Source: Verrucomicrobiales bacterium
Lineage (GTDB): Bacteria > Verrucomicrobiota > Verrucomicrobiia > Verrucomicrobiales > DEV007
Direction: 5' to 3'
DNA: 64,000 bases
Assembly (NCBI GenBank): GCA_002698785.1
Contig: PAAG01000053.1
Span: forward strand, 1-64,000
Shown: positions 1 to 29,558 of the stretch, one piece after another
How positions within the stretch are numbered: position 1 is the first letter of the stretch
How the letters are laid out: each line of letters starts with the position of its first letter
The notes under the pieces: generated by a model
The model's input: the letters and a program-made list of their open reading frames with translations, nothing else
What the model was told of the DNA's origin: nothing
The model's database searches: none
Position numbers and translations under genes: made by a program

Positions 1-378
1 CTATGCTTCGTGCTGAGCGTCGAAGATCCCAACCGCTTCCCGAAAGCGCGAGACGTAGGGGCCTGGTTAGGATTGGTTCCCAAGCGCGACCAATCCGGTG
101 AAACCGATCGGGAACTTCCCGTGAGTAAAGCCGGAAACCGCTACCTTCGAAGCCTGTTAGTGCAATGTGCCCAATACCTGCTTGGCCACTACGGACCCGA
201 CTGCGACTTGCGGCGACATGGGTTGAAGCTTGCCGCCAAAGGAGGCCGGAGTGCGAAGAAAAAAGCCATCATCGCCGTGGCCCGCAAACTGGCCGTGCTC
301 ATGCTGGCGATGTGGCAGGATCGGAGCGACTACGTCGCGCTGAAGAACAGCGAAAATCCATCGCTCCAGGCAGCTTAG
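1..378 (+). CDS. IS110-family transposase, C-terminal fragment (5' end outside window)
   Basis: The frame is open from base 1, so the gene begins upstream of the window. The visible 125 residues match the C-terminal helix-hairpin-helix domain of IS110/IS116/IS902 transposases: a 'VEDPNRFPKARDVGAWLGLVP' type stretch, then a Gly-Asn-Arg-Tyr-Leu-Arg segment and a basic C-terminus. The N-terminal RuvC-like DEDD catalytic domain is not visible, so it cannot be told whether the copy is intact. IS110 elements usually lack clear terminal inverted repeats, so the element's end could not be placed; it probably lies shortly after 378. The next gene is in the opposite direction. Confidence 0.85.
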   Translation, partial: LCFVLSVEDPNRFPKARDVGAWLGLVPKRDQSGETDRELPVSKAGNRYLRSLLVQCAQYLLGHYGPDCDLRRHGLKLAAKGGRSAKKKAIIAVARKLAVLMLAMWQDRSDYVALKNSENPSLQAA

Positions 379-699: not shown

Positions 700-3453
700 T
701 TAAGGCATTCGACGATCCAGTGCAGAAAAGCAGCCCGCTGACCTCCATCGCTCACGGTTTCCCACCACATACAGCACGGATTTGGCTCGGGTCACCGCCA
801 CATTCAGGAGATTCGGTCGCGCCCCAGCCCATTGACGTGCGCCGCTTTGATCTTCGTTAGGAGCCCCTAACAAAAAAATAACCGCTTCCGCCTCTTTGCC
901 TTGAAAGGTATGAACCGTTCCGATCCGTTCTGAAGCCCATCCCCTGACATCGGAAGTCCATTTGCTGAAGAGTTCCCTTTCCCTGATACACAGGTTGATC
1001 ATTTCTCTTCTTACTACTCGGAACGGAGTGATGATAAAAATGTCCGGACTCTCCACCCCTCTCTCAGCCATCTTCTTCAACATGGCCAAGACACATTCTC
1101 CTTCTCCAGCACACCACTTTGACTGCCCAATTCCCTGAATGTTTATCCAGCGGGACGGTCCAAAAAGATCGCGAATCTCCGAAGTCCTCTCAGGTGTTGC
1201 TTGAACCATTTGCCCGGCGTAGGCGATTCGATTTGAAATTGCGAACATCGGTTCTTCGCATCTCCGATGAACGAGAAGGGGAGCCCCGATAGTGACCGCT
1301 CCGATTTCGTCTTCAATCTCACTCCGGACCGAGCTTGCTGCATCTGCCAATGTCTGCGTGGATGCTCCGACTGCCCAAACATCCGGCTCGACCCCAAAGT
1401 CGCGAGCAATCGCGGCAACCAATGAATCTGGAAGAGTGACGACCGGTTCGATCTGTCGAGGATCGCCGACGACTACAACTCGGCGCGATCTCATTTTTGC
1501 ACCGGCGGCAGCTTGCGGAACTGCTTGACCCGCCTCGTCGATAAGCAACCAACCCAGCGTTTCAATAGGTAAACGTCCGAGCATCCGATTTACGGAAGCG
1601 AAAGTAGTAGAAACTACCGGAGTAACTAAAAATAGCGTCGCCCAGAGATCAGGCAGCAGAGCATCCTTCTCCGGTGTGCCCAATTTCTTTCCCAAAAATG
1701 TCTGGAACAAGGCCATTAGGTTGTGGCGCACCTGCTTGGCGCACACATCGAGAAAGGCTCGTTGGAGACTGATGGCCGCTTTGAAGACTATATCGCGTTT
1801 TTCCTGGCTCGCCTTGATCAGCCAAGGCGTAGATTTCTGTCGAGGCCCGTGTTCCTGTGACCAAAAAGCATCATCTGCAAACGCGGGTCCGATTCTACTT
1901 CGGATGGCTTCCAAATAATTCTCGGTATGAACAAGCTCCTCCTTCGCTTTCGAACAGTCGCTTCGAGCAATCTCATTTTCACGCTGAAGATTGCCCAGTT
2001 CGGCACCCAGCGTCTGACTTATGTTCTGCCATTTGCTCAGCTCTGCTTTTTTATGTTTCCAAGCGTGGAAAAGGTGCGAGTCCCGCTTTTCCCACTCCTT
2101 CCACTGTCGGCTAGAAAACAACCTTGAGAAAAAACCGGGGCGATGTCCTCGGTGCTCTGACAGCACTCTGCTCGCATCGCCACGGGAGCGTTCGGCCTCT
2201 TTCAGCCCCACTTCGGCTTGAGCCAATTCTGCCCCCTTAACAGCGATCAGTTCAGCCATATGTCGAAGTTGCTTCTCAATGTCTTGAAGTTTTTTCCGCA
2301 GTGCCCCTATGGCCAAAAGCTTGGTTCTGGTTTCTTCCAACTGTTCTAATTCGCGCTTGGCTTCCGAGACTGCCTCCAAAAAAGCTTTTCTAGCAGAATG
2401 CCATCGCCGGAGTGCAGAGGGACGGCCATCTGGCGGATCTTCCAACTCCAAAATGTGAGGCAAACGCTCGATGGTTTCGCCTGTCTTCGGGTCTTCTTCT
2501 TCTATTGGCTGCACGGCACTGCCACTAGCAGCTCTAAAGTAGTTATTGAGGCTGGTGTCAGGTTCTCCCCAGACAGTCCTACGAAAGCGGCTCCGGTTCA
2601 CAGCATTTCCCAGCACAGCGGCGATGAGCCCCCAAGTTTCACCCGGCTCTGCATCGCCTGCGAGAGCATCGCTGACAGACTTGAAATAGCTCAAATCATC
2701 CGCAGCGATCTGGCTTCGTCCCGGTAGTTCCCGCGAAATGTTTTCAACGGCCTTATTGTTTGAGGACGCGACTACGATCTCGTGACCCTTAACGGTCTCA
2801 CTGACACGATAAAGATGACAAAATGCCTGTCCCGCCCGGATTTGCTGCCCTGAGTGCTCGAATGATAACTCTGGATCATCCAGCTTGGCCATCTGCTGCG
2901 CACGTTCTACGATGACCGCTGCTACAATGTCCCTTAGAAGGGTGGTCTTCCCGCTCCCCGGAGGACCGTTAATTCCCATGATTCCCCGAGAGGATAGTTT
3001 GTTGAAAGCCGCGTTGACAGCAGCCTGCTGGAGCAGCACGAGGGAATGAACAGATGGCCAGCGTCCTATTGGAGTAGCCATTGGCCGAAGCGTTTGTTCG
3101 AGAGTCTGCTGGTCACGGAGAAAGTCATCGACTTTTTGCGGACGCTCTTCGCCGAGGTATTTTCGGAGAGCTAAACCTAGATTTCCCTCTACGAAATTAG
3201 ACTGGGCCAACTCTATATCGGTAAGGAAAAAGCTATTTAGTAAAGCCGGTTCCGGAGCATCATTCAGGGCTTTCCATTGGTAAACTCGGATAGCGAACGA
3301 AGGTTCGGCAACCAAGTAGTCAGGCAATCCTAGATTTGCCAGATGGAGTCGGAAAGCGTCATTTATTACGGGCTTCGATAAAGGGAGAAGCTCTCCATCG
3401 TCGTCATACGCTTCAATCTGTCGCTTAATATCCGAGTAAGTTCTGATTCGCAT
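700..3453 (-). CDS. Superfamily 1 helicase (DNA2/NAM7-like), main part of a probably frameshifted gene
   Basis: 917 residues. A Walker A motif (GPPGSGKTT) lies near residue 163, a Walker B/DEAG motif (LLIDEAGQA) near 640, then VVGDPRQIEP (motif III region), TVHTFQGKEAE and NVAVTRAKS near the C-terminus. Together these are the AAA_11/AAA_12 signature of UPF1/DNA2-type helicases. A long charged coiled-coil insertion (about 360-520) separates the two halves of motor domain 1. The first ATG lies inside the 3' end of the next upstream frame (88 bases overlap), and the two frames together look like one protein of about 1200 residues. It lies downstream of the Shango-like genes on the same strand and is probably an accessory part of that module. 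Whether it is functional in this split state is open. Confidence 0.85.
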   Translation of the reverse strand: MRIRTYSDIKRQIEAYDDDGELLPLSKPVINDAFRLHLANLGLPDYLVAEPSFAIRVYQWKALNDAPEPALLNSFFLTDIELAQSNFVEGNLGLALRKYLGEERPQKVDDFLRDQQTLEQTLRPMATPIGRWPSVHSLVLLQQAAVNAAFNKLSSRGIMGINGPPGSGKTTLLRDIVAAVIVERAQQMAKLDDPELSFEHSGQQIRAGQAFCHLYRVSETVKGHEIVVASSNNKAVENISRELPGRSQIAADDLSYFKSVSDALAGDAEPGETWGLIAAVLGNAVNRSRFRRTVWGEPDTSLNNYFRAASGSAVQPIEEEDPKTGETIERLPHILELEDPPDGRPSALRRWHSARKAFLEAVSEAKRELEQLEETRTKLLAIGALRKKLQDIEKQLRHMAELIAVKGAELAQAEVGLKEAERSRGDASRVLSEHRGHRPGFFSRLFSSRQWKEWEKRDSHLFHAWKHKKAELSKWQNISQTLGAELGNLQRENEIARSDCSKAKEELVHTENYLEAIRSRIGPAFADDAFWSQEHGPRQKSTPWLIKASQEKRDIVFKAAISLQRAFLDVCAKQVRHNLMALFQTFLGKKLGTPEKDALLPDLWATLFLVTPVVSTTFASVNRMLGRLPIETLGWLLIDEAGQAVPQAAAGAKMRSRRVVVVGDPRQIEPVVTLPDSLVAAIARDFGVEPDVWAVGASTQTLADAASSVRSEIEDEIGAVTIGAPLLVHRRCEEPMFAISNRIAYAGQMVQATPERTSEIRDLFGPSRWINIQGIGQSKWCAGEGECVLAMLKKMAERGVESPDIFIITPFRVVRREMINLCIRERELFSKWTSDVRGWASERIGTVHTFQGKEAEAVIFLLGAPNEDQSGARQWAGARPNLLNVAVTRAKSVLYVVGNRERWRSAGCFSALDRRMP

Positions 3454-4262
3454 TTGGGCCAGTGCTTCAATGCCTCAAGGTCTCTTCTACATGCGTGGGG
3501 CAACGCCCATCCAAAACTGGAAATTGCGACAGAACCGTCCTCAACTGGCTTTCCTTCACGATCGGTCGTGATAACCGCCAGAGCCGCGAAATCTCTCGGC
3601 TCTGGCCTTTCCGGGTGATGATCGTCGAAAGCCTGGAGAAGCAACTTCGTAGCGCGATCCATCCGAATCGCTCCAAGGTATATTTGGTAGAAGAGGTTTG
3701 TTTTCGGCCTCGCATTCTCTAGCTTGCCATCCCACGGAAGCGCAGTTTTTTCAAACTCGGCAACCCGCCATCTCTCTCCATCCGCAAGGTCTTCTGAGCG
3801 ACGATACGTCTGTGGCGATAGGACCTCCCAAGCTAACCAAGCCGAAAGAATCTCATCGGGCCGGTTCGAGATAGGGGGAAGCGGTCTCGCTATGTCTGGA
3901 AGAGGAAAGTCTCGCTCAGCCATCTCTTCCCAACTTCGCCCAGCATTCTCAAACCCGAAATTGTCATGACCAGTTTCTGGCTGTGACTCGCCCGAAGGAG
4001 TAGCCGTGTTTTTCTCTGGCTCAGCGCGAGATTTTGCTTCCGCCTCGGAAGAACGAGTGTCTTTCGGATTGGGTATCGAAGTGGTGCCTTTCCCCACCTT
4101 TTTGATAGCCTCTCTTACCTGCTCGTGGAGGCGATTGGCGCGATGGGTGCTTCGATGAATTAGCTCGTCATCGAGATTCTTCAAGATCTCCGGATTCTTG
4201 TGATGAGCCGTGAAAAGATTCTCTAGCTCTACAATACCAAAGTTGAAGTATGGGCGGTCCAT
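3366..4262 (-). CDS. N-terminal portion of the SF1 helicase gene, separated by a frame change
   Basis: 298 residues, ATG start at 4262. No catalytic motif is visible. The region about 35-120 is charged and of low complexity, with a folded-looking part after about 130. The stretch near 245-275 (SSFGWALPHACRRDLEALKHWP) resembles the region that precedes the motor domain in large SF1 helicases of defence loci, as I remember them. After about residue 285 the frame runs into unlikely sequence and stops. The helicase frame starting at 3453 contains the natural continuation (IEAYDDDGELLPL). I infer one ancestral gene spanning 4262 to 700 with a frameshift near 3410-3440, which may be a mutation, an assembly error or recoding. 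If the two are really separate, this would be a small partner protein translated in coupling with the helicase. Confidence 0.6.
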   Translation of the reverse strand: MDRPYFNFGIVELENLFTAHHKNPEILKNLDDELIHRSTHRANRLHEQVREAIKKVGKGTTSIPNPKDTRSSEAEAKSRAEPEKNTATPSGESQPETGHDNFGFENAGRSWEEMAERDFPLPDIARPLPPISNRPDEILSAWLAWEVLSPQTYRRSEDLADGERWRVAEFEKTALPWDGKLENARPKTNLFYQIYLGAIRMDRATKLLLQAFDDHHPERPEPRDFAALAVITTDREGKPVEDGSVAISSFGWALPHACRRDLEALKHWPKCESELTRILSDRLKRMTTMESFSLYRSP

Positions 4263-4637
4263 TCCGGTATGCTATTTCGGTAAAAATCCGTTCGCAATTT
4301 ATCAGTTCATATTCCCTTCAGAAATTGCAGACGAATTAGCGAGAGAATCCCGCACACCAATTGTTCTCAGTTGCTGTGATTCGTATTTGTTTTCAAGAAA
4401 TCTAATGTTCAAAAGAAGCGAGGCAAAGTCGGAGGATTGGATTATCACAATGTGCGCGGAACTTGAGCACTTCGTGCATATGCAATGGTTTAACCTAACA
4501 AAAGCCCGAATAAGAGTAGTCGAGAGGTTGTCACTGTAAAGGCATCCAGCATACCTTGCTATCCCGTTCAACATCCCAATGCACCGAGAAGGCGTGCCGG
4601 TGAGTTCAATTCAGTCCTCATCTCCAAATAGCAGAGT
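4263..4637. other. Intergenic stretch downstream of the Lhr-like helicase
   Basis: 375 rather AT-rich bases between the helicase stop and the next minus-strand start. Two overlapping short frames on opposite strands show no recognisable protein features. It may hold the promoter for the SF1 helicase gene. No clear terminator seen. Confidence 0.35.
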
Positions 4638-6836
4638 TCATTTTCGCCACTTCCCAAGTGCCGAACGTGCAACACGTGCTGTCCCGCCCAAATCCAGAAT
4701 CCTTCGTGCATTCGCTCTGTCGAGTGTTTCGGTATCGAGACACTCGTCATACTTGTGGAAATGCTTCGCAGGAAGGTGGGCAGCTAACTCCAATGGGTCA
4801 GACGCTCCAACCACGAGTTCGTTGAGAAAACCACGGAATCGTTCCTCATCTTTCATTCCTGAAAAAGTCAGGTGAAGTAGCCCGCACTCGACTTTGATTT
4901 CACGTAAGCTTGCCTCGGTAACGATAGTTAGCATTGTTTTTGTTCCAGCCCAAGGGAACCATCTCACCCCGCCGGGAAATGGCACAAGCTCACTCCGGTC
5001 GAGGTGATATCGATGAAATTCGGCCCGAGCCGACTCAATTCGGTTCATTGCCTCTGCGTCCAGGTAGACCAACGGTTCTTTCGTAGAGAGTATCTCTCTC
5101 ATTTTTCCGATCACCGCATCATGAATGAATCCACTGGTTCCCATGAAGACTGGTTTAGTGTATCCGCGAGACGGCTGCACAAAGACAGATTTTAGTTCTC
5201 CATCGATGTCAATAACCTGCCATCTTCTTCCACCAAGAAGCAGATGCTGGCCAACGGGAGGGATTGAATCAACGGGTAGCTTTCCAATCTCATCTTCGCC
5301 ACAGCGAACACTATATTCCTCTACCGCTTGGAAGGCCGCATAGAAATCCTTGCTTTCCACAATTCGCTCTCCTTTTGGTGCCAGAATCAAATTCCCATCA
5401 GCCATCTGCTCAATCAATTCGACAGAACCAAGTGCTCTCAACACGTTCTGGAAAACTCCGCTTTCCACGCTACGGAATGCTCCTTTCTCGCACAGTTGAA
5501 AAAATAGCCGATCGGGCCGAAGCCCTCCTGTCTGACGGAGAATGCTGAACATTTGATGAATCAAGGTGCTGAGATGCCAGTCATCCTCGTCCAAAGGCTC
5601 CAGCCACCCTTCGATCATCAGCTCAATTAAAGCGCAAAACCGAAGTAAATTGGGATAGAACCGATCCTCGATATTTCCCTCAGGTGCTGGATTCTCATCA
5701 ATAGCGTATCCTCTCAAAATCGAACTCTCTCCTTCTCGACGACCAGATCGACCGACTCGCTGAACTAGCGAATTTACACTCCATGTGGGGCCAATTTGGC
5801 CGACCGCCTTCGCTGCACCGATATCAATTCCCATTTCCAGCGTAGCGGTGCAAAAGGCGGTTACTGGTAGTCCATGCCCTTCGCCCAGTTTTAACTCGCC
5901 TTCGACTTCCTCACGTATCTCCTTACTTATCGATCCATGGTGAATCCGAAACGGGTTTCTCGCCCACTTTTCCTGGTGGCTTATCTGTTGAAGTTGATCT
6001 GCCAATGTTTCTGCCAGGCCACGGCTATTCGTGAAGATTAGATTGCTTCCTTTGCGAAAGTCTTTGGCGAGGTCCGAGACAAGCCGAATAAATTCTGGAT
6101 CTTCCCTCTCCTCTCCTTCCTCTTCGGCCTTCAGATAGCTTCGCAATCCCACCTTTAGCTCATTCCTGTCGGACTCAGGCGATATCACTTCGACTGAGGC
6201 TGGTAACGCTTCATCGAGGAATTGCTGGGCCACGGTCCAATCTCCAAGTGTAGCAGAAAGTCCGAGCATTCTTGGATCTGCACCTGCGGCAAGACGAAGG
6301 CGGGCTAGCAAGCTCTTTAAATGTGTTCCTCGAACTCCTTCCAGAAACGAATGAAGTTCGTCGATGACCACAAACTCTAGTCTTGAGTAGATTCGTTCGA
6401 GATGGGCTCCGTAGTTGATGAAGTTTGACTCCAGCGACTCTGGAGTGATTAAGAGCACTCCCCCAGGATTCTCCCGAAACTTCTTCTTTTGAGTTGCTGA
6501 TACATCCCCATGCCACTTGTGCACAGGAATTTCTGCGTATTTACACAGGTCCTCCAACCGGCGAAATTGGTCGTTGATCAACGCCTTTAGTGGGCCTACG
6601 TAAACTGCTCCCACGCCTGATCGATCTGGCTCTTCCGCCAAGCGAGACAATATTGGAAGGAATGCAGCTTCGGTTTTTCCAGATGCCGTCGCGGCAGCGA
6701 GAACTATATCATTGTCTCTCTGAAGGACTGCGCGGATGGAGTCTTCTTGGAGTGGCCTAAGTCGTTCCCATTTCGTTTCTTGATTCCAGATCGCTTCTTG
6801 AATCTTTCGATGAAGCAGATCGAAAGCAGGGATCAT
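4638..6836 (-). CDS. sngC: DEAD/DEAH-box Lhr-like helicase, SngC-like component of a Shango-type antiphage module
   Basis: 732 residues. Superfamily 2 motifs are all visible: motif I ATASGKT at 49-55, motif II DELH at 159-162, motif III SATLGD, a TNSRG segment, and motif VI QRVGRSGRR. The ATLEMGIDIG...QRVGRSGRR arrangement is that of Lhr-type helicases, and the protein continues with a C-terminal region as in this family. Its ATG overlaps the stop of the upstream ATPase gene by four bases (ATGA), so the two are translationally coupled. A TerB-domain protein, a P-loop ATPase and a helicase in this order is the arrangement called Shango (SngA-B-C), where the helicase is thought to act on invading nucleic acid. 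A relative, the BrxHI helicase of BREX type 2, also sits beside a similar ATPase, but no PglX or PglZ gene is seen here. Confidence 0.8.
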   Translation of the reverse strand: MIPAFDLLHRKIQEAIWNQETKWERLRPLQEDSIRAVLQRDNDIVLAAATASGKTEAAFLPILSRLAEEPDRSGVGAVYVGPLKALINDQFRRLEDLCKYAEIPVHKWHGDVSATQKKKFRENPGGVLLITPESLESNFINYGAHLERIYSRLEFVVIDELHSFLEGVRGTHLKSLLARLRLAAGADPRMLGLSATLGDWTVAQQFLDEALPASVEVISPESDRNELKVGLRSYLKAEEEGEEREDPEFIRLVSDLAKDFRKGSNLIFTNSRGLAETLADQLQQISHQEKWARNPFRIHHGSISKEIREEVEGELKLGEGHGLPVTAFCTATLEMGIDIGAAKAVGQIGPTWSVNSLVQRVGRSGRREGESSILRGYAIDENPAPEGNIEDRFYPNLLRFCALIELMIEGWLEPLDEDDWHLSTLIHQMFSILRQTGGLRPDRLFFQLCEKGAFRSVESGVFQNVLRALGSVELIEQMADGNLILAPKGERIVESKDFYAAFQAVEEYSVRCGEDEIGKLPVDSIPPVGQHLLLGGRRWQVIDIDGELKSVFVQPSRGYTKPVFMGTSGFIHDAVIGKMREILSTKEPLVYLDAEAMNRIESARAEFHRYHLDRSELVPFPGGVRWFPWAGTKTMLTIVTEASLREIKVECGLLHLTFSGMKDEERFRGFLNELVVGASDPLELAAHLPAKHFHKYDECLDTETLDRANARRILDLGGTARVARSALGKWRK

Positions 6837-8167
6837 AGCCGAAAGGTGGCAAGGTCGGAATCATCGTCATCGGCAACAGCCCCTTCTTTTAACACTCTCT
6901 CCTCTACCGACAAGCTGTCGTCAGCTTCAATAAAAACACCACCGGAATCCAAAACATTCTCCCATGTCGCTCCTGGATTGCTATCGAGAATATTGAGTAG
7001 GCCTATAAATGATCGAACAACGTCTCTGGGAGTTCGGAAATACTCCGCTCCCAGTTCTTCATTTGCTTGCCGCAAGACTTTTGTAATGGCTTCCTCTGGA
7101 ACTGCCATCTTGCTAGGATCTCCGTCCGCGTGAACCAAAGCGATGTTTCGGAGGAGAACAAAAAGGTCTTCGGGGGCCAATGCCGCCAAACGGATTACCG
7201 GTCCAGAGAGATCAATGAAATCGTCACTAGCAAATCGGTTTTCTGCTAAACGGGATCTCAGTGCTTCGTAACTAAACAATCCTCGTCGGCGATCCTCCAG
7301 ACATTCATCTGTCCCAGCAAAGAGAAAACCAATACCTTTCGCGTTCCCCTGGATTGAATCGTTTAAGATCGAAAGGAGTGCTTCGTAGTTGGCAGTCCGG
7401 GACCGACTGCTGGGCAGTCGATGTGACAAAACCACCATCTCATCACAGATTACGAGGAGTCCTCCATAACCGGCGATCCTAGCAAAAGCGGACATCAAAG
7501 AAAGGCTATTATAAAAAGTCTCATCGTCGATGATTCGTCTTACCCCAAGGTCTTCTCGTGCTTCAGTTTTCGTCGGATACTCAGCGCGAAGCCAGCGTAT
7601 TGCACAACTCTTACCCCTGTCGTCATTCTCGAAATGGCTCTTCTGAAAGTGCCGTAGCACTTCTGCGAACTCGAATCCTCCCACGTATCCCTCCAGAAAT
7701 CGAAGATTTCTTCCCAACTCAGCACGGACATCGGCATCCGTTCCTCCTTCTGACTTGATTCGATGGTTCGCCTCAGAGATCCATTGGTCACACACATTTT
7801 CCAATGCTCCCCCATCTGGTTGACTCTGGGAAGCCAGGTTGCGCATCAGTTCTGTGTATAGTGCTCGCGCCTCGCCTCCACGGGCATAGAGCCGACGCTC
7901 TGTTGTGAAGTCGGCTTGGGCCACTAACAATCCCTGTTTCAGTGCAACAGTCCTAACAAGGTTTAGAAAGAAGCTCTTGCCGCTGCCAAAACGCCCAACC
8001 GCAATTCTGAATGACGCTCCGCCTTCTCCGATTCTTTCGATATCTTCGAGGATCGCTTCGATTTCTCTCTTTCGGCCCACTTGAATCAAATGAAGTCCCT
8101 GCTTCGGAACTAACCCCGCTTGTAAGGATTGAAGAATCGCTGCCTTCTCTCTTCTCTTTACTTTCAT
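6833..8167 (-). CDS. sngB: P-loop ATPase, SngB/BrxD-like component of a Shango-type module
   Basis: 444 residues from the ATG at 8167 (a TTG two codons upstream is possible). A Walker A motif GRFGSGKS lies at 58-65 and a Walker B-like LLVICDE in the middle, followed by 'GFLFAGTDE' and an Arg-rich sensor-like segment. The N-terminus (an alpha-helical stretch, then GRKREIEAIL before the P-loop) is typical of the DUF2791/BrxD family of AAA+-like ATPases found in defence loci. It starts 10 bases after the stop of the TerB gene and ends in a 4-base overlap with the helicase gene, so the three genes form one transcription unit. By family knowledge it probably controls or loads the helicase; the substrate is unknown. 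Confidence 0.8.
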   Translation of the reverse strand: MKVKRREKAAILQSLQAGLVPKQGLHLIQVGRKREIEAILEDIERIGEGGASFRIAVGRFGSGKSFFLNLVRTVALKQGLLVAQADFTTERRLYARGGEARALYTELMRNLASQSQPDGGALENVCDQWISEANHRIKSEGGTDADVRAELGRNLRFLEGYVGGFEFAEVLRHFQKSHFENDDRGKSCAIRWLRAEYPTKTEAREDLGVRRIIDDETFYNSLSLMSAFARIAGYGGLLVICDEMVVLSHRLPSSRSRTANYEALLSILNDSIQGNAKGIGFLFAGTDECLEDRRRGLFSYEALRSRLAENRFASDDFIDLSGPVIRLAALAPEDLFVLLRNIALVHADGDPSKMAVPEEAITKVLRQANEELGAEYFRTPRDVVRSFIGLLNILDSNPGATWENVLDSGGVFIEADDSLSVEERVLKEGAVADDDDSDLATFRL

Positions 8168-8177
8168 TGTCAAATTT

Positions 8178-10493
8178 TCAGTCGTCTTCTGGTATTAAGT
8201 CGCTGTAGATTACGAAATCGCTGCCAGTCTCCTCGATAAGAAAGTCTCCCAAAGCTTCGTCGGACCAGAGATTGACTTTGGAAATCAAATCTGCTGGTAG
8301 GAGGTGGGATTCCGTAGCTAGCTCTTCTAATTGCTTTTCCGAGAACTCTTCCCACTGAATCATTTTCGTGAGAGGTTTCCGATAAGGTGAATCCAATTCT
8401 TCCATCCAGGAGGGGAAGCTTTCATCCTTCCCATTTCCACCGACAACTTCAGGCTCAGCTTTCAATTCGGAGTTTGCTTCCTCTTCGTCCATGATTTCCG
8501 ACAGGACTTTCACAATTTGATCGGTTTCAGCCGTGATGCTGGCGATCTTGCTCATATCGAGCTGGAATACATTTTCTGGGGGTTTCTCGTCAGGCCGAGA
8601 GGGGATTGCCTCGCCGCGACGATTGCTTTTCTTGCCTTTGACTACCGTGACCTCAGTGAATGTCTCTGAATCTCCGGTCATTTGTTGCTCCAGAAAATCC
8701 GCAGGCAAATCGAATTTCCGAAATGCCGTCTTTAGCACTTTGTGCTCTTCCGGAGTGATTACCCCATCTGCCGCAGCCACCTGAATGATATACCGAGCTA
8801 TCAATGGTCGCCGTGCTGGTGCAACCCCTCCGGCTATTCGATTCAAAGACTTCATCGCGACCGTTGTGTCTCTGAGTAGGGCTGCACCAGTAGCTTCCAA
8901 GAAAATCCGCTCATGATCGCAGGTTACTTCTTCCCGAGCAATGCTCTCGAACACAGCGACTTCTTCGGGATCTACTGAACCATCGGCGTCGGCAATGGCA
9001 ATTGTCAGATAGAGCATGCGAATAAATCCGACCAGGTTCTTCGACGGATTTGCATGCGATTTTTCCGTAAGATAGACAGCGCATTCCTGGTTCCATGCTA
9101 ACGGGAGTCCCGTGACTCGCGGATCGGGGGCTAACTGATACCCTAAGCCATCGATGTGCTCCGCGAGCTTCCGGCTTTGTGTTAGAGTTAGCTTTTCCCG
9201 GAAGGCAATTCCAAAGAGTTCTGCCATCACGGAAACAGGGAGAAAGAACAAGTCACCTTCTTTCTCACATCCGGTTATGATCCGTGTCCAATTCTTGTGA
9301 AACGGGTGGCTATCTGGTTTGCGTAACTCATCCGGAAGTTTGAGAAATGCCTTCAATGCTTGTTCATTTGCTTCGCCCGATTCGCCTGCCATGGCACGAC
9401 TGTATCCGGAAAGATCTTCAATGCATTGATTCCAGATTGAGACTAGCGTCTTGAATTGGCTCCGGATGCCCATCACATGAGGCACTGATACCCTGAAGGA
9501 ATGGTTCCTCGAATGGTAGGTCATTTGTAGTAAGGCAGAGCTTGCAGGTCGATACTCGGACCACACATCCCGTTTGGCCGCCTTCAAAATCATGCCGTCT
9601 GGATAAGCTTCTTCAAAACGCTGCTGGAACAATTTCCAAAACTTGTCTCCTGAACGCTCGATCACGACGCTGTGCCGAGTCCCATCTAGCCGTGGTGCAA
9701 CTCGCAATGCGACCGTCCAATGTAAGGGCTCGCCTCTCTGATGCAGATTCGCCAGGATTAACTTCAACGCCTCACCATCGAGATATTTAGTGTAATTCAG
9801 ATAGTTGGGCCATAGCGATCTGTATTGCTCCACTCCCTGGTTGTAGCCGTCCAAATGGAGCAAATCTGTAAAGTAGCTGCGTATCGAACCCGACTGCCCG
9901 CCATACATCTTTAACAGTTCTTGAACCTCTGCTCGAAGCATTGGGTCACGGTCGCGATCGAGAAGAAGCCTTCTCTCCAAGCCGTAGAAGAAGCAGAAAA
10001 CATATCCCACCTGACGCACGGAAGGGTCTGAATCCCTCCTCCCCGATGCCAGCCATTCGAGATAGATTGCTCGCTGGTTAGGATACATCTTTTCGTAACT
10101 AGGGTAGTATCCTAGCTCTTCGTCAATAACGGTTCCTTTTGTCTGAAAGGGGAGCCCTAGAAAAATAGTCGACGGCTCGTAGGTCATCGCTCGATTTCCC
10201 TTGGCCGCAAATACTAGCCCTCCGTCGTAGCGAAAATTTCCGATCCGAATCGATTCATTTGGGCGAATCCATTGGATATCCCCTGAAACTCTTGAATTTG
10301 AGGGCGGTCGAGTCTTCGGAACGGGAGGAGGCTGCTTGTGCGACTTCGAGTTGTTCTCTTTCTTTTTCGGGAAAAACTTCCATCTCAGGAAAAAGCCTCC
10401 AGCGAGTCCCAGTCCTGCTCCAACAAGAAAACCAGGCAGCCCGTTCGCAAGAGACAAAACAATACCTAAAACAATTGCAAAAATCCACGGCAT
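8178..10493 (-). CDS. sngA: TerB-domain membrane protein, SngA-like component of a Shango-type module
   Basis: 771 residues from the ATG at 10493. I chose this start because a membrane segment follows at once (about 2-37: IFAIVLGIVLSLANG..., then a second hydrophobic stretch). The frame stays open to another ATG at 10565, and neither start has a good ribosome site. After a basic proline-rich linker comes a TerB_N-like domain (about 70-250, with the YYPSYEKMYPNQRAIYLEWL segment), a middle region, and an acidic helical TerB domain (about 475-610, with two DADGSVDPEE / AADGVITPEE metal-binding-like motifs). A TerB_C-like acidic C-terminus follows. TerB domains are linked to membrane-associated stress and phage defence. 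It is the first gene of the three-gene unit and is probably the membrane-anchored sensor. Confidence 0.8.
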   Translation of the reverse strand: MPWIFAIVLGIVLSLANGLPGFLVGAGLGLAGGFFLRWKFFPKKKENNSKSHKQPPPVPKTRPPSNSRVSGDIQWIRPNESIRIGNFRYDGGLVFAAKGNRAMTYEPSTIFLGLPFQTKGTVIDEELGYYPSYEKMYPNQRAIYLEWLASGRRDSDPSVRQVGYVFCFFYGLERRLLLDRDRDPMLRAEVQELLKMYGGQSGSIRSYFTDLLHLDGYNQGVEQYRSLWPNYLNYTKYLDGEALKLILANLHQRGEPLHWTVALRVAPRLDGTRHSVVIERSGDKFWKLFQQRFEEAYPDGMILKAAKRDVWSEYRPASSALLQMTYHSRNHSFRVSVPHVMGIRSQFKTLVSIWNQCIEDLSGYSRAMAGESGEANEQALKAFLKLPDELRKPDSHPFHKNWTRIITGCEKEGDLFFLPVSVMAELFGIAFREKLTLTQSRKLAEHIDGLGYQLAPDPRVTGLPLAWNQECAVYLTEKSHANPSKNLVGFIRMLYLTIAIADADGSVDPEEVAVFESIAREEVTCDHERIFLEATGAALLRDTTVAMKSLNRIAGGVAPARRPLIARYIIQVAAADGVITPEEHKVLKTAFRKFDLPADFLEQQMTGDSETFTEVTVVKGKKSNRRGEAIPSRPDEKPPENVFQLDMSKIASITAETDQIVKVLSEIMDEEEANSELKAEPEVVGGNGKDESFPSWMEELDSPYRKPLTKMIQWEEFSEKQLEELATESHLLPADLISKVNLWSDEALGDFLIEETGSDFVIYSDLIPEDD

Positions 10494-10755
10494 CGTAGTG
10501 AAGTTAAGTGGTCGATTCGGAAATGAAAAGTAGTTAGATACTAATTTGCAGGAGTTTTGCCCCATGCCTATGGACTTTGCTCAGCCACTCGACGGAAACA
10601 ATTGCATGAGCAGAAGAGGGATTCTCGAATCCACCTTGAACAAGAAAGCCAAGGGATGACAAAAAGTGCTGATTTGCTCGACGCTCCTTCAATTTGCCCG
10701 AAGTCCAAAAACGTATGCGCCTGCAAGGAAGGCGTCGGATTGAGTAAGCAGATGA

Positions 10756-11262
10756 TCATAGCTCATCGACACCCAAGCTTTCGACAAATTCTCTCCCCTT
10801 GGGAGTGACATGGAACCGCACTGGAGTAGTGTCCACTCCGTTTTCGACACTCGCTATGATCCCATTGTTTCCTTCTCGAACTTCGAGGAATCCGGCTTCG
10901 ATCAATCGCTCATACAAGAGCCGCATACAGCTGGGGTAAGGGGTGCAATTGACGACACGGTAAAACTTGAAAAGGTAATCCAGTTCGATTTTTGAAAAGC
11001 GGTCGTGAGCAAAGCGAAGGTTCGCTTTATACAGGCGAAGAGACTTGCGATCAATTTCTCCACGGTCTGCTCTTCTGTGGCAGTTGGGACACAAGGCGAT
11101 GAGGTTCTCATACTCATGCTTTTTAACTTTTTCCCACGGTTCAATGTGATGAACATCGACCTCGATGTAGCGGCAGGTAGGTATTGCACATCGGTGGCCA
11201 GATTCGACCAGGACACGTCGCCTTACTTCTGCTGGAATGGCTGGCCGGTTGTTGCTTTCCAT
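10756..11262 (-). CDS. HNH endonuclease family protein
   Basis: 168 residues, ATG start. The HNH site is easily seen: Cys25 and Cys30, His38-His39 (DVHHIEPW), Asn53 (ENLIALCPNCH), Cys58, Cys61 and His62, a zinc-bound beta-beta-alpha-metal fold. The C-terminal half (about 95-168) looks like a small winged-helix domain (YERLIEAGFLEVREGNNGIIASV...). It lies 190-260 bases upstream of the TerB gene on the same strand. It could be part of the defence module as a nuclease effector or an independent homing or restriction-type nuclease; the spacing argues against tight coupling. Confidence 0.8.
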   Translation of the reverse strand: MESNNRPAIPAEVRRRVLVESGHRCAIPTCRYIEVDVHHIEPWEKVKKHEYENLIALCPNCHRRADRGEIDRKSLRLYKANLRFAHDRFSKIELDYLFKFYRVVNCTPYPSCMRLLYERLIEAGFLEVREGNNGIIASVENGVDTTPVRFHVTPKGREFVESLGVDEL

Positions 11263-11376
11263 GGGAAAATGATTACCAAAGACCTATGGTTGCGTCCCAA
11301 TCCGACACTTGGCGTCTATTCCTCTTTCTCAATATCGGAAAGGTTTGAATTATCATGGGCGACGATTGCAGGACAA

Positions 11377-11703
11377 CTATAACTGCTGCTTCAGGCGATC
11401 GTATTCCGCATGCAGCGACGCCATCTCCTCTTGTAACTTGGACATCCGTTTCAGGACATCGAGAGTAGATGATACCTTCTGCGCAGCAGCTTTACGATTA
11501 GGGGAGGTGTTTCCTTTCCGCTTTTTCCCCGCTTTCCCTGGAGTCGATACCCCTGCGCTGGTCAGCCAGTTCTTGATGGTAACGGGATTGATTGAAAACT
11601 TCTCCACGGCTGCGGATTGCCCACCCCTACCGTTCTCCTCATTGTAGGCACGGACAAAATCCACAACCTCGTCCTTAGTCTTTTTGTCGTAGCGAACTGC
11701 CAT
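11377..11703 (-). CDS. Small helix-turn-helix protein with C-terminal coiled coil
   Basis: 108 residues from the ATG at 11703; the frame extends upstream without a protein-like composition, so the internal ATG is preferred. Residues about 1-55 (RYDKKTKDEVVDFVRAYNEE... then SINPVTIKNWLTSAG) look like a transposase OrfA-type or Sigma-70-region-4-type HTH. The rest is a basic Lys/Arg linker (GKAGKKRKGN) and a heptad-like helix (LDVLKRMSKLQEEMASLHAEYDRLKQQL). It resembles small transposase-associated or nucleoid-binding proteins. No partner transposase is seen nearby. It runs divergently from the resolvase gene. Confidence 0.55.
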   Translation of the reverse strand: MAVRYDKKTKDEVVDFVRAYNEENGRGGQSAAVEKFSINPVTIKNWLTSAGVSTPGKAGKKRKGNTSPNRKAAAQKVSSTLDVLKRMSKLQEEMASLHAEYDRLKQQL

Positions 11704-11937
11704 GGCTGATTTTAACTCAAGTGTTAGGCCGGAATCAAGGAATAGCCATAGCCTCTTTCTGCGATGGGGCTTATCACGATCAGAATCCACTCGGATTCGA
11801 TAAGAACGTAGCAACTCGACTCTGCGAAATCCATCAGAGCATCGGGCAGTGCCGGTCTTCATTCGGTGAATCCACTCGTTGCCAAAACCTCGGTTTCTGC
11901 ACGGATCTGAATACGGGGGTTATTCCTTGATCCAGCG

Positions 11938-11987
11938 ATTGCAAAAACCTATTGCAAAATTGCGAAACCTGTGCGACGTTTTTGCAT
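11938..11987. promoter_or_regulatory. Possible res site / operator of the serine resolvase
   Basis: Three related words lie just before and at the resolvase start: attgcaaaaac (11938-11948), attgcaaaat (11951-11960) and the inverted gtttttgcat (11978-11987). The outer two form an inverted repeat with 9 matching bases (tgcaaaaac / gtttttgca). Resolvases of this family commonly bind inverted sites upstream of their own gene, both to recombine and to repress. That this is such a site is inference. Confidence 0.45.
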
Positions 11988-12549
11988 GCTCTTCGGTTAT
12001 GCTCGCGTTTCTACTTCAGACCAAAACAATGAGGCCCAGATTGAAGCCCTGAGGGAGGCAGGAGCAGAAAGAATCTTCGAGGAAAAGGGTTCTGGGGGCC
12101 GGTGGGACAGACCGGAATTACAGAAGATGCTGGATCAACTCCGCAAGGGTGATGTGGTCACCGTGTGGAAGTTGGACCGGCTGAGCCGATCGCTTCTCGA
12201 TCTGCTGAGGATAATTGCTCGCTTGGATGAACTGGGTGTCGGATTCCGATCAATCACTGAGTCGGTAGATACCACGACACCAGCGGGGCGAATGCTTTTA
12301 CAGATGATCGGAGCCTTCGCGGAGTTCGAGAGATCCATGATCCGTGAACGCACACGGGAGGGATTGAAGGCGGCACGGAAGAAAGGCCGCATCGGTGGAA
12401 GGCCGAAAGCGTTGTCCGAGGATCAGATCGCCGAGGCAAAGAAAATGATAGAGTCCGGGAAGAAAACGAAAGCAGATGTAGCTCGCCTTTTCGATGTCCA
12501 TCCGTCTACGATCAGTCGTCTGGTTTCGACCAACGGTGGTCTTGGATAG
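11986..12549 (+). CDS. Serine recombinase, resolvase/invertase family
   Basis: 187 residues from the ATG at 11986. The frame also has a GTG at 11971, but the family starts right at 'MLFGYARVST'. The catalytic region shows YARVSTSDQ with the nucleophilic Ser at residue 9, WKLDRLSRS, and FAEFERSMIRERT at the start of the E helix. A C-terminal HTH (about 145-185, KKTKADVARLFDVHPSTISRLV) binds DNA as in Hin and Tn3 resolvases. Length is normal, so it appears intact. It probably resolves or inverts part of the island. No Tn3 transposase is visible, so it may be a leftover of a transposon or a plasmid-type multimer resolution gene. Confidence 0.93.
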   Translation: MLFGYARVSTSDQNNEAQIEALREAGAERIFEEKGSGGRWDRPELQKMLDQLRKGDVVTVWKLDRLSRSLLDLLRIIARLDELGVGFRSITESVDTTTPAGRMLLQMIGAFAEFERSMIRERTREGLKAARKKGRIGGRPKALSEDQIAEAKKMIESGKKTKADVARLFDVHPSTISRLVSTNGGLG

Positions 12550-12611
12550 ATCAACGAGTTTCGATCGGTTGATTTAACACCTTTTGTCGCGCCCTCCCCC
12601 TCACAGACTTT

Positions 12612-13139
12612 TCATGTGACTGTGTTGGCAGCTTTGTTCTCCTGAATGCAACGGTCGAGATACGCGTCGACTTCGCCTTCTGCCAAATCTATAAGACTCA
12701 TAGCTTGATGGTCCGTTAGCTGACTAATTCGTGGGTCAGGCTCCCCTGACGAATGAAGTGCGTAGTGGTAAGCGAACAAGGGTATTTCGCTTTTGTTTTG
12801 TCCGTATCGGTTCGCCGTGAAGACCCTCAAGTCCCAGCAGTAGCCATCCAGCCACCAATAAAAATCGATTAGACGCCTTAGTTTTTCCGTTGTCAGAGGA
12901 TGAGTATCCTCAATCTCAATCACCCATACCTCCTCTTCGTCTTCCTTGATCACGAAGGCATCAGGGATAAACCGAGGTCGATGATACTTCCACTCCCTGC
13001 TAATATCGCCTCCTTCAAGTTCTGTGAGAAGTTTGCGCATTTCCTTCGCAAATCCACGGCCTCCTCGGATCTCAGGGTTAAACGAACGGAGCATTCTTAC
13101 CGTCAAGTCGCTCCATGTAGGATTTTCAGATGAACCCAT
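12612..13139 (-). CDS. Hypothetical protein with possible PD-(D/E)xK nuclease-like core
   Basis: 175 residues from the ATG at 13139, preceded by an AAGAAAG stretch; a GTG at 13202 would add 21 residues. The centre reads RFIPDAFVIKEDEEEVWVIEIEDT: a Pro-Asp strand followed by a strand ending in Glu-x-Glu. This is the layout of PD-(D/E)xK nucleases, but with Glu where the family normally has Lys. A helix with an aromatic run (RLIDFYWWLDGYCWD) follows. The function is therefore uncertain: it may be an inactive or variant nuclease fold. It is the last gene of a minus-strand series and follows the ParB-like gene closely (81 bases, or 18 with the longer start). Confidence 0.55.
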   Translation of the reverse strand: MGSSENPTWSDLTVRMLRSFNPEIRGGRGFAKEMRKLLTELEGGDISREWKYHRPRFIPDAFVIKEDEEEVWVIEIEDTHPLTTEKLRRLIDFYWWLDGYCWDLRVFTANRYGQNKSEIPLFAYHYALHSSGEPDPRISQLTDHQAMSLIDLAEGEVDAYLDRCIQENKAANTVT

Positions 13140-13220
13140 CTTTCTTAGTAAAGATTTGAGGAATGGTAGCGTGAATTGGCAGCCTGCTCGATGAGAAGGC
13201 ACTGATTTGAATCAGGGGAG

Positions 13221-13751
13221 TCAATCAACTTGCGCGGCGGGATTGGTCTTACGATCGCCGTCTTGTTCGGCCCGTTCGTCATACTCATCCGCATGATCAG
13301 GAGTTAGAAGAATAGGGAATCTGCCAGAATGATTGATAAACCCAATCGCGAACCGGTTGTGGCCACTCCTTACAAAGAAAGACGAAGTGCGTTGATCGAA
13401 AATAAGCCACGGCGGAGTTAATGCCTTCCCATCGACAATGTCATTGATGATTCCAGCAGTCTTCCGCTTGGCGTGAGTATTCCAGAAATTTGCAGAGCGA
13501 TACTGGTGAGGGAGGCCCAAGATGTCTTTAAGTAAAATCACGCTGGCATCCTTAACGACCAGACCATTCTTGAACTCTTGGGGAGCGATGTCGTGATATC
13601 GGTCGAAAGGTGTATCGAGATCCCAAATTATCGAAAGCTGTTGAACAAAACCGATGCCCCGCTGCTCGAAGTCATTAGCCAGTCGATCAAGCGACTCATT
13701 GTCGTGATCATAGGTGACTGGGTGTTCCATTCCACGGTCAACGAGTTTCAT
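13221..13751 (-). CDS. Hypothetical protein with weak ParB/sulfiredoxin-like features
   Basis: 176 residues, ATG start. The protein is not recognised with certainty. The part about 95-150 (INDIVDGKALTPPWLIFDQ...FFVRSGHNRFAIGFINHSG) has the order of a ParB-type domain: a 'functional-value' strand, then a Gly-His-x-Arg turn with a following helix, where ParB proteins have G-H/E-R-R. Several such domains are nucleases or CTPases in mobile elements. The C-terminus is acidic and disordered. It lies between the Mrr-like gene (98 bases upstream) and the PD-(D/E)xK-like gene on the same strand, so a joint role is plausible. Confidence 0.5.
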   Translation of the reverse strand: MKLVDRGMEHPVTYDHDNESLDRLANDFEQRGIGFVQQLSIIWDLDTPFDRYHDIAPQEFKNGLVVKDASVILLKDILGLPHQYRSANFWNTHAKRKTAGIINDIVDGKALTPPWLIFDQRTSSFFVRSGHNRFAIGFINHSGRFPILLTPDHADEYDERAEQDGDRKTNPAAQVD

Positions 13752-13848
13752 TCTAGCTTCATCTTACCGAATGTTTACACGATGTAATTGCCTGTAAACA
13801 TTGAGCTTCGACTTCTGGGTATGGTTCGAAGTTTCACTGGGTTGTCGA

Positions 13849-14703: not shown

Positions 14704-14865
14704 GTTTTGCACGACGATAATGGTGACTTACAGCTCAAGTTCGTTGATATCCTCCGCCTTGGTCTCTCTTTGCAGTTTGCGGTTCCAAAATTGGTGCCTG
14801 ACTTGGATGGGCGAGAAACATGCGGAAAAATGCGAAGATCTTTTGGGTGTGTTCATATCGATCCC

Positions 14866-20524: not shown

Positions 20525-21943
20525 TCAACCCGTGGCTTGTAGAGCTTCGTCTTCAAAATCAGGTGCTGATGTTGCCATTGTTAAGACAGGCCCAAGGCCG
20601 GACACTACTTGTTGCTTGTTATCCACGTAGTGTTTCGATGTGATCCGGATATCACTGTGTCTCAGCAGGCTGGATGCAGCATGGATACCAGCCTGTGCGC
20701 AGATAAGTGTCCCATACTCCTTCCTCAAGGCATGAATGGGATTTCGGGATGATATTCCCTGTGACTTGAGCCACGTGATCAACGTATCGAAATGGCGGTG
20801 TGCGCGGTAGTGCCGATAGGTGACTTGAGGCTTAGCCTCGCCCCCATCAATGACGAACTTCCCCTGTGATTTTTCCCATTGTTCTCGGAAAAACTGAAGC
20901 ACTTCAAAATCCACGGGCATATCGCCGCAACTGTCCGCTTTGGGTTCGAAGCAGTCTGTCGGCTCAATTCGCAGAATCCCTTTGTTCCAGATGAACTGAG
21001 ACCACTGAAGTTTGTCGATCTCGTTCCTGCGGAGGCCCACGGTCAAAGCCAGCAACAGAATTTTGAATGCTTCCCTTTTCGAGTTTGCCTGTATCTGTGC
21101 TATTTCGCGAGCGCGAGGCAATAGGGGGTGCATTGGAATCCCTTTGTAGAGGGCTACCTCATTCTTGGGTATGGCGGCATAGAGTTCTTCGGTGGCTGCT
21201 TGGAGAAGCTCGTGAGGTTCACATTGTGATCGGTAACGATATGAGCCTTCAGATTCGTAGATAACCCCGTCGAATGGCAATGGGTCCGGTAGTTCAATGT
21301 GCTTCAAGAAGTTTAGATGCTTCCGGCTGAAGAGCGATTTCGCATTTCTGATGTTGGAATTTACGGTGCGACGTTTGGCTTGCTGATCTCGCGGGTCTGG
21401 CTTCGCCTTCTTCAGATACTCCAGTTTCCAACGGTTTACCTTCTCCGGAGTAATACGGCGCAGTTTTACAGCGTTTACGCGATCTCTCCACGCTTTCGCA
21501 CCACCGTTGACGTAGTCACGACGGTTTGTTCCGTCCGCGTCTTTAATGTTTGCGACTTCGGATACAATCCTTCGAAATTTGTAAACGTAGGTTTTGAAAG
21601 TTCGTGCTTTCAGGGAGGTAACTTTTGAGACCTCTTCGATGAACTCACCGACGGAAAGGTCTGTCAGCACTTCCATTTGGCCTTTGAACCGCTTCCGAGC
21701 TTCGGCCCAGCCAGCACCCTTAATGCAGTGGTAAATCTCCACCGACTTCTTTCCGGCTGCACGCTTTGACGATTCACCGGTAGAAAAAGTTTCTCTGTGG
21801 CCATTGACCTGAATCCGGATGGAATAGATTTTGGATTCATGAATGTCGCCGCGAAAATTCTTTGTCGGAAAAAAAACCCGCTGTTCCCAATACCGAAAAT
21901 CGGTTTTGGAAAAAGAAGTTTTCGAGTTGGAAATTCTAGCCAC
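20525..21943 (-). CDS. Tyrosine recombinase (integrase) of the island
   Basis: 472 residues starting at GTG 21943; no better ATG precedes the domain. An N-terminal arm-binding-like region (RGDIHESKIYSIRIQVNGHRETFSTGESS) and a SAM-like core-binding region (about 90-210) are followed by the catalytic domain: Arg in LTVGLRRNEIDKLQW, HALRKEYG (His-x-x-Arg), LLRHSDIRITSKHYVD with His and the nucleophilic Tyr. Length is at the high end for integrases, and all key residues are visible. It lies about 140 bases from the tRNA-Phe fragment, as expected for an integrase next to its attachment site. Confidence 0.93.
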   Translation of the reverse strand: MARISNSKTSFSKTDFRYWEQRVFFPTKNFRGDIHESKIYSIRIQVNGHRETFSTGESSKRAAGKKSVEIYHCIKGAGWAEARKRFKGQMEVLTDLSVGEFIEEVSKVTSLKARTFKTYVYKFRRIVSEVANIKDADGTNRRDYVNGGAKAWRDRVNAVKLRRITPEKVNRWKLEYLKKAKPDPRDQQAKRRTVNSNIRNAKSLFSRKHLNFLKHIELPDPLPFDGVIYESEGSYRYRSQCEPHELLQAATEELYAAIPKNEVALYKGIPMHPLLPRAREIAQIQANSKREAFKILLLALTVGLRRNEIDKLQWSQFIWNKGILRIEPTDCFEPKADSCGDMPVDFEVLQFFREQWEKSQGKFVIDGGEAKPQVTYRHYRAHRHFDTLITWLKSQGISSRNPIHALRKEYGTLICAQAGIHAASSLLRHSDIRITSKHYVDNKQQVVSGLGPVLTMATSAPDFEDEALQATG

Positions 21944-29543: not shown

Positions 29544-29558
29544 TTCCCGTTGCCGCCC

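What the first reader, a model, noticed from the sequence alone, without database searches (positions are those of the whole stretch)
700..10493. Shango-like module extended by an SF1 helicase
Seen: on the minus strand, a TerB-domain membrane protein, a BrxD/DUF2791-like ATPase and an Lhr-like helicase are tightly coupled (10-base gap, then an ATGA overlap), followed by a large DNA2/NAM7-type helicase. Known: the first three match the Shango layout (SngA-B-C). Inference: the second helicase may be a fourth component that makes a distinct subtype, with two motor proteins of different families.
Basis: partly seen in the sequence, partly recalled or inferred. Interest (0 to 1): 0.75.

Follow-up and report, generated by a model that had tools for sequence, protein, structure and literature searches.

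The report
Shango defence genes beside unrelated helicase
The window holds a genuine three-gene Shango anti-phage system, and the fourth "extra helicase" next to it is a wandering stand-alone helicase gene, here broken in two, that usually lives without Shango.

Summary
The trio is real: SngA, SngB and SngC match their PADLOC profiles (7e-49, 7e-154, 7e-228) in the reported order and coupling. The SF1 gene is there too, but not as one gene: two overlapping ORFs (3366-4262, 700-3453) correspond to one long helicase. Both pieces line up head to tail on a single protein in 79 of 83 relatives. It starts 375 bp after sngC, at a contig end beside a transposase remnant.

Of the 80 nearest helicase relatives, 4 have Shango within the held flank (up to 10 kb). 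Of 28 Shango loci not chosen for the helicase, 1 carries a relative. Shango-adjacent helicases are scattered on the helicase tree (5 label changes) and the SngB tree (5). The helicase is Upf1-like, nearest to Mokosh II MkoC but without its PLD end. In published work three Shango genes sufficed for (modest) defence.

Open: SF1 motors repeatedly land beside Shango. A different pair, an AddB-like nuclease plus UvrD helicase, sits 2 bp behind sngC in some alphaproteobacterial loci, and beside BREX and ubiquitin-like genes elsewhere.

The parts
8178..10565 (-). sngA: TerB_N / TerB / TerB_C protein, 795 aa (771 if started at 10493), hydrophobic N-terminal stretch
   Evidence: PADLOC SngA 7e-49; Pfam TerB_N 9.5e-26, TerB_C 3.8e-17, TerB 4.4e-10
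6833..8173 (-). sngB: BrxC/BrxD-type AAA+ ATPase, 446 aa (TTG start; ATG at 8167)
   Evidence: PADLOC SngB 6.7e-154; Pfam BrxC_BrxD 1.3e-134; Walker A GRFGSGKS
4638..6836 (-). sngC: SF2 helicase, 732 aa, ATGA overlap with sngB
   Evidence: PADLOC SngC 7.1e-228; Pfam DEAD and Helicase_C
4263..4637 (-). 375-bp gap between sngC and the helicase reading frame; no promoter- or terminator-like pattern, unremarkable fold
   Evidence: fold z-score -0.76
3366..4262 (-). N-terminal piece (298 aa) of the SF1 helicase, in a different frame from the motor
   Evidence: no family hit alone; matches the N-terminus of intact relatives, the match ends at residue 285 (median)
700..3453 (-). motor piece (917 aa) of the SF1 (Upf1/MkoC-like) helicase
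   Evidence: PADLOC MkoC 9.1e-63, profile positions 231-946 of 1136; AAA_11/AAA_12
3366..3453 (-). overlap of the two helicase frames, where the frame break lies
   Evidence: relatives run through uninterrupted
1..378 (+). remnant of an IS110-family transposase at the contig end, beside the helicase (context, not part of the system)
   Evidence: Pfam Transposase_20 1e-16; contig starts here
20525..21943 (-). tyrosine integrase, possible edge of the mobile or defence island (context)
   Evidence: Pfam Phage_integrase 5.6e-10

Best explanation
The locus is an ordinary three-gene Shango system in a defence island of a (most likely) Verrucomicrobiota genome. Beside it lies an independent, horizontally moving, single-gene SF1 helicase of the Upf1/Mokosh-II-helicase type, here split by a reading-frame break. 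Shown: identity, order and coupling of sngABC; the split; the motor motifs; that the nearest relatives of the helicase are nearly all in one frame and mostly without Shango nearby; that linked copies are scattered on both trees. Inferred: SngA (TerB domains, membrane-bound) senses or anchors, SngB (AAA+, BrxD-like) loads the SF2 helicase SngC on invading DNA. The SF1 helicase, when intact, would be a nucleic-acid translocase with a coiled-coil stalk acting on its own. In this genome it is probably inactive or works only as two polypeptides. The two sit together because defence genes pile up in the same islands.
For: Trio: PADLOC/Pfam. Split: (79 of 83 relatives); 78 of the 80 nearest loci have the helicase as one ORF of 991-1,320 aa, one more is cut by its contig end (L079) and one is broken (L063). 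No fixed partner: no other neighbour cluster occurs in more than 7 of 80 loci. Linkage: 4 of 80; 1 of 28 (23 of the 28 show at least 3 kb beyond sngC). Four Shango loci from the same phylum, incl. the nearest SngB (63%, L117), lack it within about 7-8 kb either side. Relatives in the window's order that carry the helicase (L032-L034) show no Sng match in 20 kb. Alphaproteobacteria draw without its centre: SngB in 5 of 386 genomes, helicase in 6 of 386 (both at 1e-60), both in 1 (G623), on different contigs. Trees: 5 changes for 5 adjacent helicases among 84 rows, 5 changes for 6 adjacent SngB among 36 rows. PMC10250203 (passages read): the three-gene system of PA14, cloned with its promoter, gave PAO1 modest (10-100-fold) plaque reduction and strong protection in liquid culture; the neighbouring large helicase gene was not counted in it.
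Against: The adjacency recurs: same strand, downstream of sngC in the window, L063 (helicase match begins 44 bp after the SngC match), L078 (51 bp) and, after one WYL gene, L108; upstream of sngA in L146 (same strand) and L147 (opposite strand). In 70 of the 153 nearest neighbour proteins, SngC was the most frequent specific defence profile (2) after the broad mad3 model (4) (25 of 75 families shown). PA14 also has a 'large multi-domain helicase' next to Shango (PMC10250203), whose kinship to this one I could not test. Chance co-occurrence inside defence islands was not modelled with a matched control. Several held flanks are short, so linkage counts are lower bounds.
Confidence: 0.8

Rival explanations
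1. Four-gene Shango subtype: the SF1 helicase is a fixed fourth component working with SngA-B-C.
For: Same-strand position behind sngC in the window, L063, L078 and L108; tight tandem in L063 and L078.
Against: 4 of 80 and 1 of 28; no clade on either tree; nearest Shango relatives lack it; the window copy is split; the L063 copy is also frame-broken; the trio alone protects (PMC10250203, passages).
Confidence: 0.06
2. Optional, repeatedly recruited accessory: SF1 motors (this helicase, or an AddAB-like nuclease/helicase pair) dock beside Shango again and again because they extend its activity, without being required.
For: About five separate joinings on the trees; another SF1 pair sits 2 bp behind sngC in L130, L150 and L166 and 272 bp behind it in L158, and by coordinates in six roseobacter/Paracoccus plasmid records, which are near-copies of each other (89.5-89.8% to the query).
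Against: The AddAB-like pair also sits beside BREX type 1 (L159), ThiF/multiubiquitin (L160) and ThiF/Mov34 (L164) genes, which fits general island traffic. Presence of SngB in helicase genomes was 2 of 41 (1e-40) against a background of 15 of 1,042 (binomial p 0.12), not significant.
Confidence: 0.2
3. The helicase is functional here as a two-subunit (split) enzyme, translated from two overlapping frames or by a programmed frameshift.
For: The motor piece keeps the motifs checked and has its own ATG; the two pieces meet on relatives with no missing residues.
Against: No slippery site seen in the overlap by eye; none of the 80 nearest relatives shares the split (the one other broken copy, L063, breaks elsewhere); an assembly error or decay explains it more simply.
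Confidence: 0.1

Closest known systems
Shango (SngA-SngB-SngC)
   Same: All three proteins match PADLOC profiles (SngB over residues 3-446 of 446, SngC 4-724 of 732, SngA 75-793 of 795), with the same order and coupling.
   Different: SngA is diverged (22-40% to other SngA in tblastn matches); a split SF1 helicase lies 375 bp behind.
Mokosh type II (MkoC)
   Same: Best PADLOC match of the SF1 helicase (9.1e-63, profile 231-946 of 1136).
   Different: No C-terminal PLD-like part (match stops at 946; in two relatives at 960 and 965; no PLD domain in Pfam), so not filed as Mokosh II.
Upf1/Senataxin/Ighmbp2/Dna2-type SF1 helicases
   Same: Predicted fold of an intact relative (L045, mean pLDDT 87.0) matches Senataxin, Aquarius, Upf1, Ighmbp2 and Dna2 (best E 3.2e-15).
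   Different: TM-score by query length is only 0.16-0.34 in the 50 rows shown, so the match is to the helicase core; about 400 residues stand before the Walker A motif, and there is a long coiled-coil insert (helices 605-684 and 709-753); no nuclease domain found.
BREX type 2 BrxD-BrxHI dyad
   Same: SngB and SngC score against BrxD (4e-40) and BrxHI (3e-114) profiles; PMC12839542 (passages) describes BrxD and BrxHI as a tight pair, BrxD perhaps loading BrxHI.
   Different: No PglX or PglZ found in the 25 window ORFs scanned with Pfam; SngA present instead.

Membership tests
Shango | TerB-domain protein SngA | tested here: met
   PADLOC SngA 7e-49; TerB_N, TerB, TerB_C
Shango | BrxD-like AAA+ ATPase SngB | tested here: met
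   PADLOC SngB 6.7e-154, far above BrxD 4.2e-40
Shango | SF2 helicase SngC | tested here: met
   PADLOC SngC 7.1e-228, above BrxHI 2.8e-114
Shango | Operon order A-B-C on one strand | tested here: met
Shango | Anti-phage activity | not testable with these tools
   only sequence available; reported for other Shango systems in PMC10250203 (passages)
Four-gene Shango subtype | Helicase conserved next to the trio across taxa | tested here: not met
   4 of 80 helicase loci, 1 of 28 Shango loci
Four-gene Shango subtype | Linked helicases or linked trios form a clade | tested here: not met
   5 label changes on each tree; the helicase tree is a quick tree with open branches
Four-gene Shango subtype | Helicase gene intact and co-transcribed | tested here: not met
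   split frame, 375-bp gap; transcription itself not testable
Mokosh type II | MkoC-type helicase core | tested here: met
   PADLOC MkoC 9.1e-63
Mokosh type II | PLD-like domain (listed for Mokosh II in a table passage of PMC10952713) | tested here: not met
   profile match ends at 946 of 1136; no PLD in Pfam scan
BREX type 2 | PglX, PglZ, BrxC core beside BrxD/BrxHI | tested here: not met
   no PglX or PglZ family among the 25 window ORFs scanned with Pfam, up to 37.5 kb; the contig ends at position 1, so the far side is unseen

The most novel reading that the evidence does not exclude
Shango carries an open docking slot behind sngC that is filled convergently by unrelated SF1 motors: a Upf1-like helicase here and in a few proteobacteria, an AddB-like nuclease plus UvrD helicase in roseobacter and other alphaproteobacterial loci. 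If these motors extend the SF2 helicase's action (for example by degrading or clearing what SngC opens), Shango would be a core with exchangeable effector motors, and the same motors would be shared with BREX and ubiquitin-like systems.
Probability: 0.17. Interest if true: 0.6.

Novelty: new member of a known kind. Interest (0 to 1): 0.3.

Why it matters
It settles that the window holds a plain Shango trio, in a phylum where the SngB search found few (4 trios in 287 other genomes), and that the extra helicase should not be counted as a Shango part. It also singles out a Upf1-like single-gene helicase family that none of the profile libraries used here names as such (481 stretches encoding a relative at E 1e-3 in one genome scan; the 80 best were studied), and an AddAB-like nuclease/helicase pair that sits beside several defence systems. 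Both are candidates for direct phage-challenge tests.

Tried and rejected
Considered and rejected: programmed frameshift (no slippery site seen by eye in the overlap; relatives uninterrupted); Mokosh II membership (no PLD part); a conserved partner gene for the helicase (the largest other neighbour cluster occurs in 7 of 80 loci; padloc and pfam tallies of 70 of the 153 nearest neighbours, 25 families of 75 and 76 shown, gave no common family); a terminator or promoter in the 375-bp gap (nothing). A 2012 paper on Ter systems was recalled as a lead and not found in the library. The identity of the PA14 neighbour helicase PA14_RS11730 could not be tested.

Rows dropped or kept with doubt: 7 of 11 Verrucomicrobiota SngB-like loci (L121-L127) were dropped because no SngA was found beside them. 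L132 (no SngC match), L133 and L154 (no SngA match by tblastn; L154 is annotated with a TerB protein) were kept in the 28. Two of the 28 (L130, L131) lie in one genome. The 12 plasmid loci were hand-picked for variety. Flanks were short in several loci (for example L049, L053, L063, L079, L131, L134, L138, L139), so linkage counts are lower bounds. The 41-genome figure uses loci L037-L078 without L062 (not held); the other 7 genomes were hand-picked and 4 of them had SngB. One search used a limit of 1e-40, the class draws 1e-60. On the helicase tree the L063 row is only the first piece of its broken gene.

Full report
OBSERVATION. The minus-strand trio is present as described. PADLOC gives SngA 7e-49, SngB 6.7e-154 and SngC 7.1e-228; the SngB and SngC scores are far above the BREX profiles BrxD (4e-40) and BrxHI (3e-114). 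Pfam finds TerB_N, TerB and TerB_C in SngA, and a hydrophobic stretch at its start is visible in the sequence. The 10-base gap and the ATGA overlap are there.

THE HELICASE IS SPLIT. The ORF 700-3453 carries the SF1 motor (Walker A at residue 163, DEAG at 639), but it is only part of the family's length. The preceding ORF 3366-4262, in another frame and overlapping by 88 bases, has no family hit by itself. Yet it matches the N-terminal ~285 residues of intact relatives: both pieces hit one protein in 79 of 83 relatives, and on those proteins the second match begins where the first ends (median distance -4). The piece 3366-4262 begins like the family (consensus), so the true gap to sngC is 375 bp. 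No promoter- or terminator-like pattern lies there and its fold is unremarkable. The window starts at the end of contig C56, beside a 378-bp IS110-family transposase remnant.

WHOSE GENOME. The genome is held without a name. One genome listed as 'same order' (G099) has a contig of 224,977 bases, the length of the Akkermansia muciniphila contig behind L075, so the window most likely belongs to Verrucomicrobiota, order of Akkermansia. This is inference.

FROM HELICASE TO SHANGO. A scan of one genome per species with an alignment of four relatives found 481 stretches that encode a relative; the best 80 were kept (41-49% identity in the best segment). Sng proteins were sought in all 80: L063, L078, L097 and L108 have them, so 4 of 80. 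In L063 the helicase match begins 44 bp after the SngC match; in L078 the ORFs are 51 bp apart; in L108 one WYL/DUF533 gene lies between; in L097 the two are about 5 kb apart on opposite strands. L095 has Shango about 11 kb away on the same contig (not counted among the 4) and the genome of L096 has it on another contig. Helicase relatives in the window's own order (L032-L034) have no Sng match in 20 kb. Among 41 helicase genomes searched whole without selection (L037-L078 without L062, which was not held) 2 have SngB, against 15 of 1,042 in the background draws (centres and own genome left out; for the phylum only the 4 trios counted); binomial p 0.12. So Shango is not clearly commoner in helicase genomes, but when present it is often close by.

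FROM SHANGO TO HELICASE. I took 28 Shango loci not chosen for the helicase: 4 of the phylum (7 SngB-like loci without SngA dropped), 12 from draws of two proteobacterial classes (11 genomes) and 12 hand-picked plasmid loci. A helicase relative was found in 1 of 28, L147 (Azospirillum argentinense), on the opposite strand upstream of sngA; 23 of 28 show at least 3 kb beyond sngC and 25 of 28 have all three Sng matches. L146 (Azospirillum B510), which I opened because both matches lay in it, also has the helicase upstream of sngA. Both are distant members (233 and 244 bits). In the alphaproteobacterial draw, SngB occurs in 5 of 386 genomes, the helicase in 6 of 386, both in one, on different contigs (centre left out).

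TREES. On a helicase tree of 84 rows the five adjacent cases need five changes of the label (seven cases with L095 and L097 added: seven) (a quick tree with open branches, two long rows, and only the first piece of the L063 gene, so the number is approximate). On a SngB tree of 36 rows the six adjacent cases need five changes; the window's nearest SngB, L117 (63%), has no helicase in its locus. So there is no helicase-bearing Shango clade.

WHAT THE HELICASE IS. Nearest named profile is MkoC of Mokosh II, but the match ends at position 946 of 1136 (960 and 965 in two relatives) and Pfam finds no PLD domain; PMC10952713 lists a PLD-like domain for Mokosh II (table passage). A predicted structure of the intact relative L045 (mean pLDDT 87.0, pTM 0.81) matches Senataxin, Aquarius, Upf1, Ighmbp2, Sen1 and Dna2 with low whole-length TM-scores (0.16-0.34), that is over the helicase core, with a long two-helix insert and an N-terminal region of its own; sequence search of solved structures gives Ighmbp2 and Upf1 first. 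In the 80 loci no other neighbour cluster occurs in more than 7; tallies of 70 of the 153 nearest neighbours show scattered defence genes, SngC (2) being the most frequent specific one after the broad mad3 model (4). I read it as a nomadic single-gene, probably defensive, SF1 helicase; 5'-3' movement is recalled for this helicase group and was not tested.

MECHANISM. For Shango: SngA anchors or senses, SngB loads, SngC moves on DNA. Loading is inferred from the BrxD/BrxHI comparison in PMC12839542 (passages); PMC12278908 (passages) places SngC with BrxHI, DruE and DpdJ. PMC10250203 (passages) reports that the three genes from PA14, cloned with their promoter, give PAO1 modest plaque reduction against many, not all, phages and strong protection in liquid, and that a 'large multi-domain helicase' gene lies beside them in PA14 and is not counted in the system. 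So a helicase next to Shango was already seen and was not needed; whether that gene is related to the window's helicase I could not test.

A SIDE FINDING. Behind sngC in L150, L130 and L166 (2 bp) and in L158 (272 bp) lies a PD-(D/E)XK nuclease (~885 aa) and a UvrD helicase (~1,120-1,130 aa) (Pfam of the L130 pair), resembling AddB/AddA by domains. By coordinates, six plasmid records (L150 and L166 among them) have the nuclease 2.19 kb after the end of the SngB match, room for sngC; they are near-copies of each other. The nuclease occurs in 60 plasmid records; of seven opened that were not in the SngB rows shown, none lists a TerB-domain neighbour (the gene tables are incomplete), and three lie beside BREX type 1, ThiF/multiubiquitin and ThiF/Mov34 genes. 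So two unrelated SF1 motors move between defence systems, and Shango is one of the places where they land.

LITERATURE. Searches with Shango/SngA-C, TerB, Mokosh, subtype and accessory terms gave no listing whose title or abstract start describes a four-gene Shango with an SF1 helicase. Two papers on BREX and YprA helicases (PMC12839542, PMC12458937; term search of the main text) do not contain the word Shango. A search for at least four of AddB, AddAB-like, UvrD, BREX, defense islands listed none. The library lacks most subscription journals, so this is weak evidence of absence.

VERDICT. A new member of a known kind: Shango, next to a split stand-alone helicase. The four-component subtype is not supported; an optional, repeatedly arising partnership is possible but unproven.

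Noticed in passing
L150:15488-21525, L166:10001-16047, L130:6117-12154, L158:17952-23965: PD-(D/E)XK nuclease plus UvrD helicase (AddB/AddA-like by domains) directly behind sngC; in other plasmids the same pair lies beside BREX type 1 (L159), multiubiquitin/ThiF (L160) and ThiF/Mov34 (L164) genes.
   Followed up: partly
L063:3270-6863: The Shango-adjacent helicase of this Deltaproteobacteria/Myxococcota MAG is also frame-broken, in the coiled-coil part, while 78 of the 80 loci have one long ORF.
   Followed up: partly
L108:8333-9109: A 258-aa WYL protein with weak DUF533 similarity sits between sngC and the helicase; WYL genes also lie upstream of the nuclease/UvrD pair in L159, L161 and L164.
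   Followed up: no
L032:5873-10510 and L152:16415-21364: A 1,545-aa gene upstream of the Akkermansia-type helicase (L032) weakly matches the phage-defence candidate PDC-M54A (2e-7), and a strong PDC-M54A match (1,649 aa, 2e-174) sits behind sngC in Nonomuraea (L152).
   Followed up: no
window 10756-14712: Upstream of sngA: an HNH endonuclease (10756-11262), a resolvase (11971-12549) and an Mrr-type restriction endonuclease (13849-14712), consistent with a defence island; the resolvase has relatives beside Shango in L148 and L157.
   Followed up: partly
window 29550-32819: Protein kinase with WD40-type repeats behind an ECF sigma factor; the many PADLOC PD-T4-6 matches cover only the kinase part.
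   Followed up: no
L121-L127: Loci of the window's phylum with SngB-like (about 40-43% in tblastn) and, in 6 of 7, SngC-like genes but no SngA match; probably BREX-type BrxD/BrxHI pairs (not checked).
   Followed up: no
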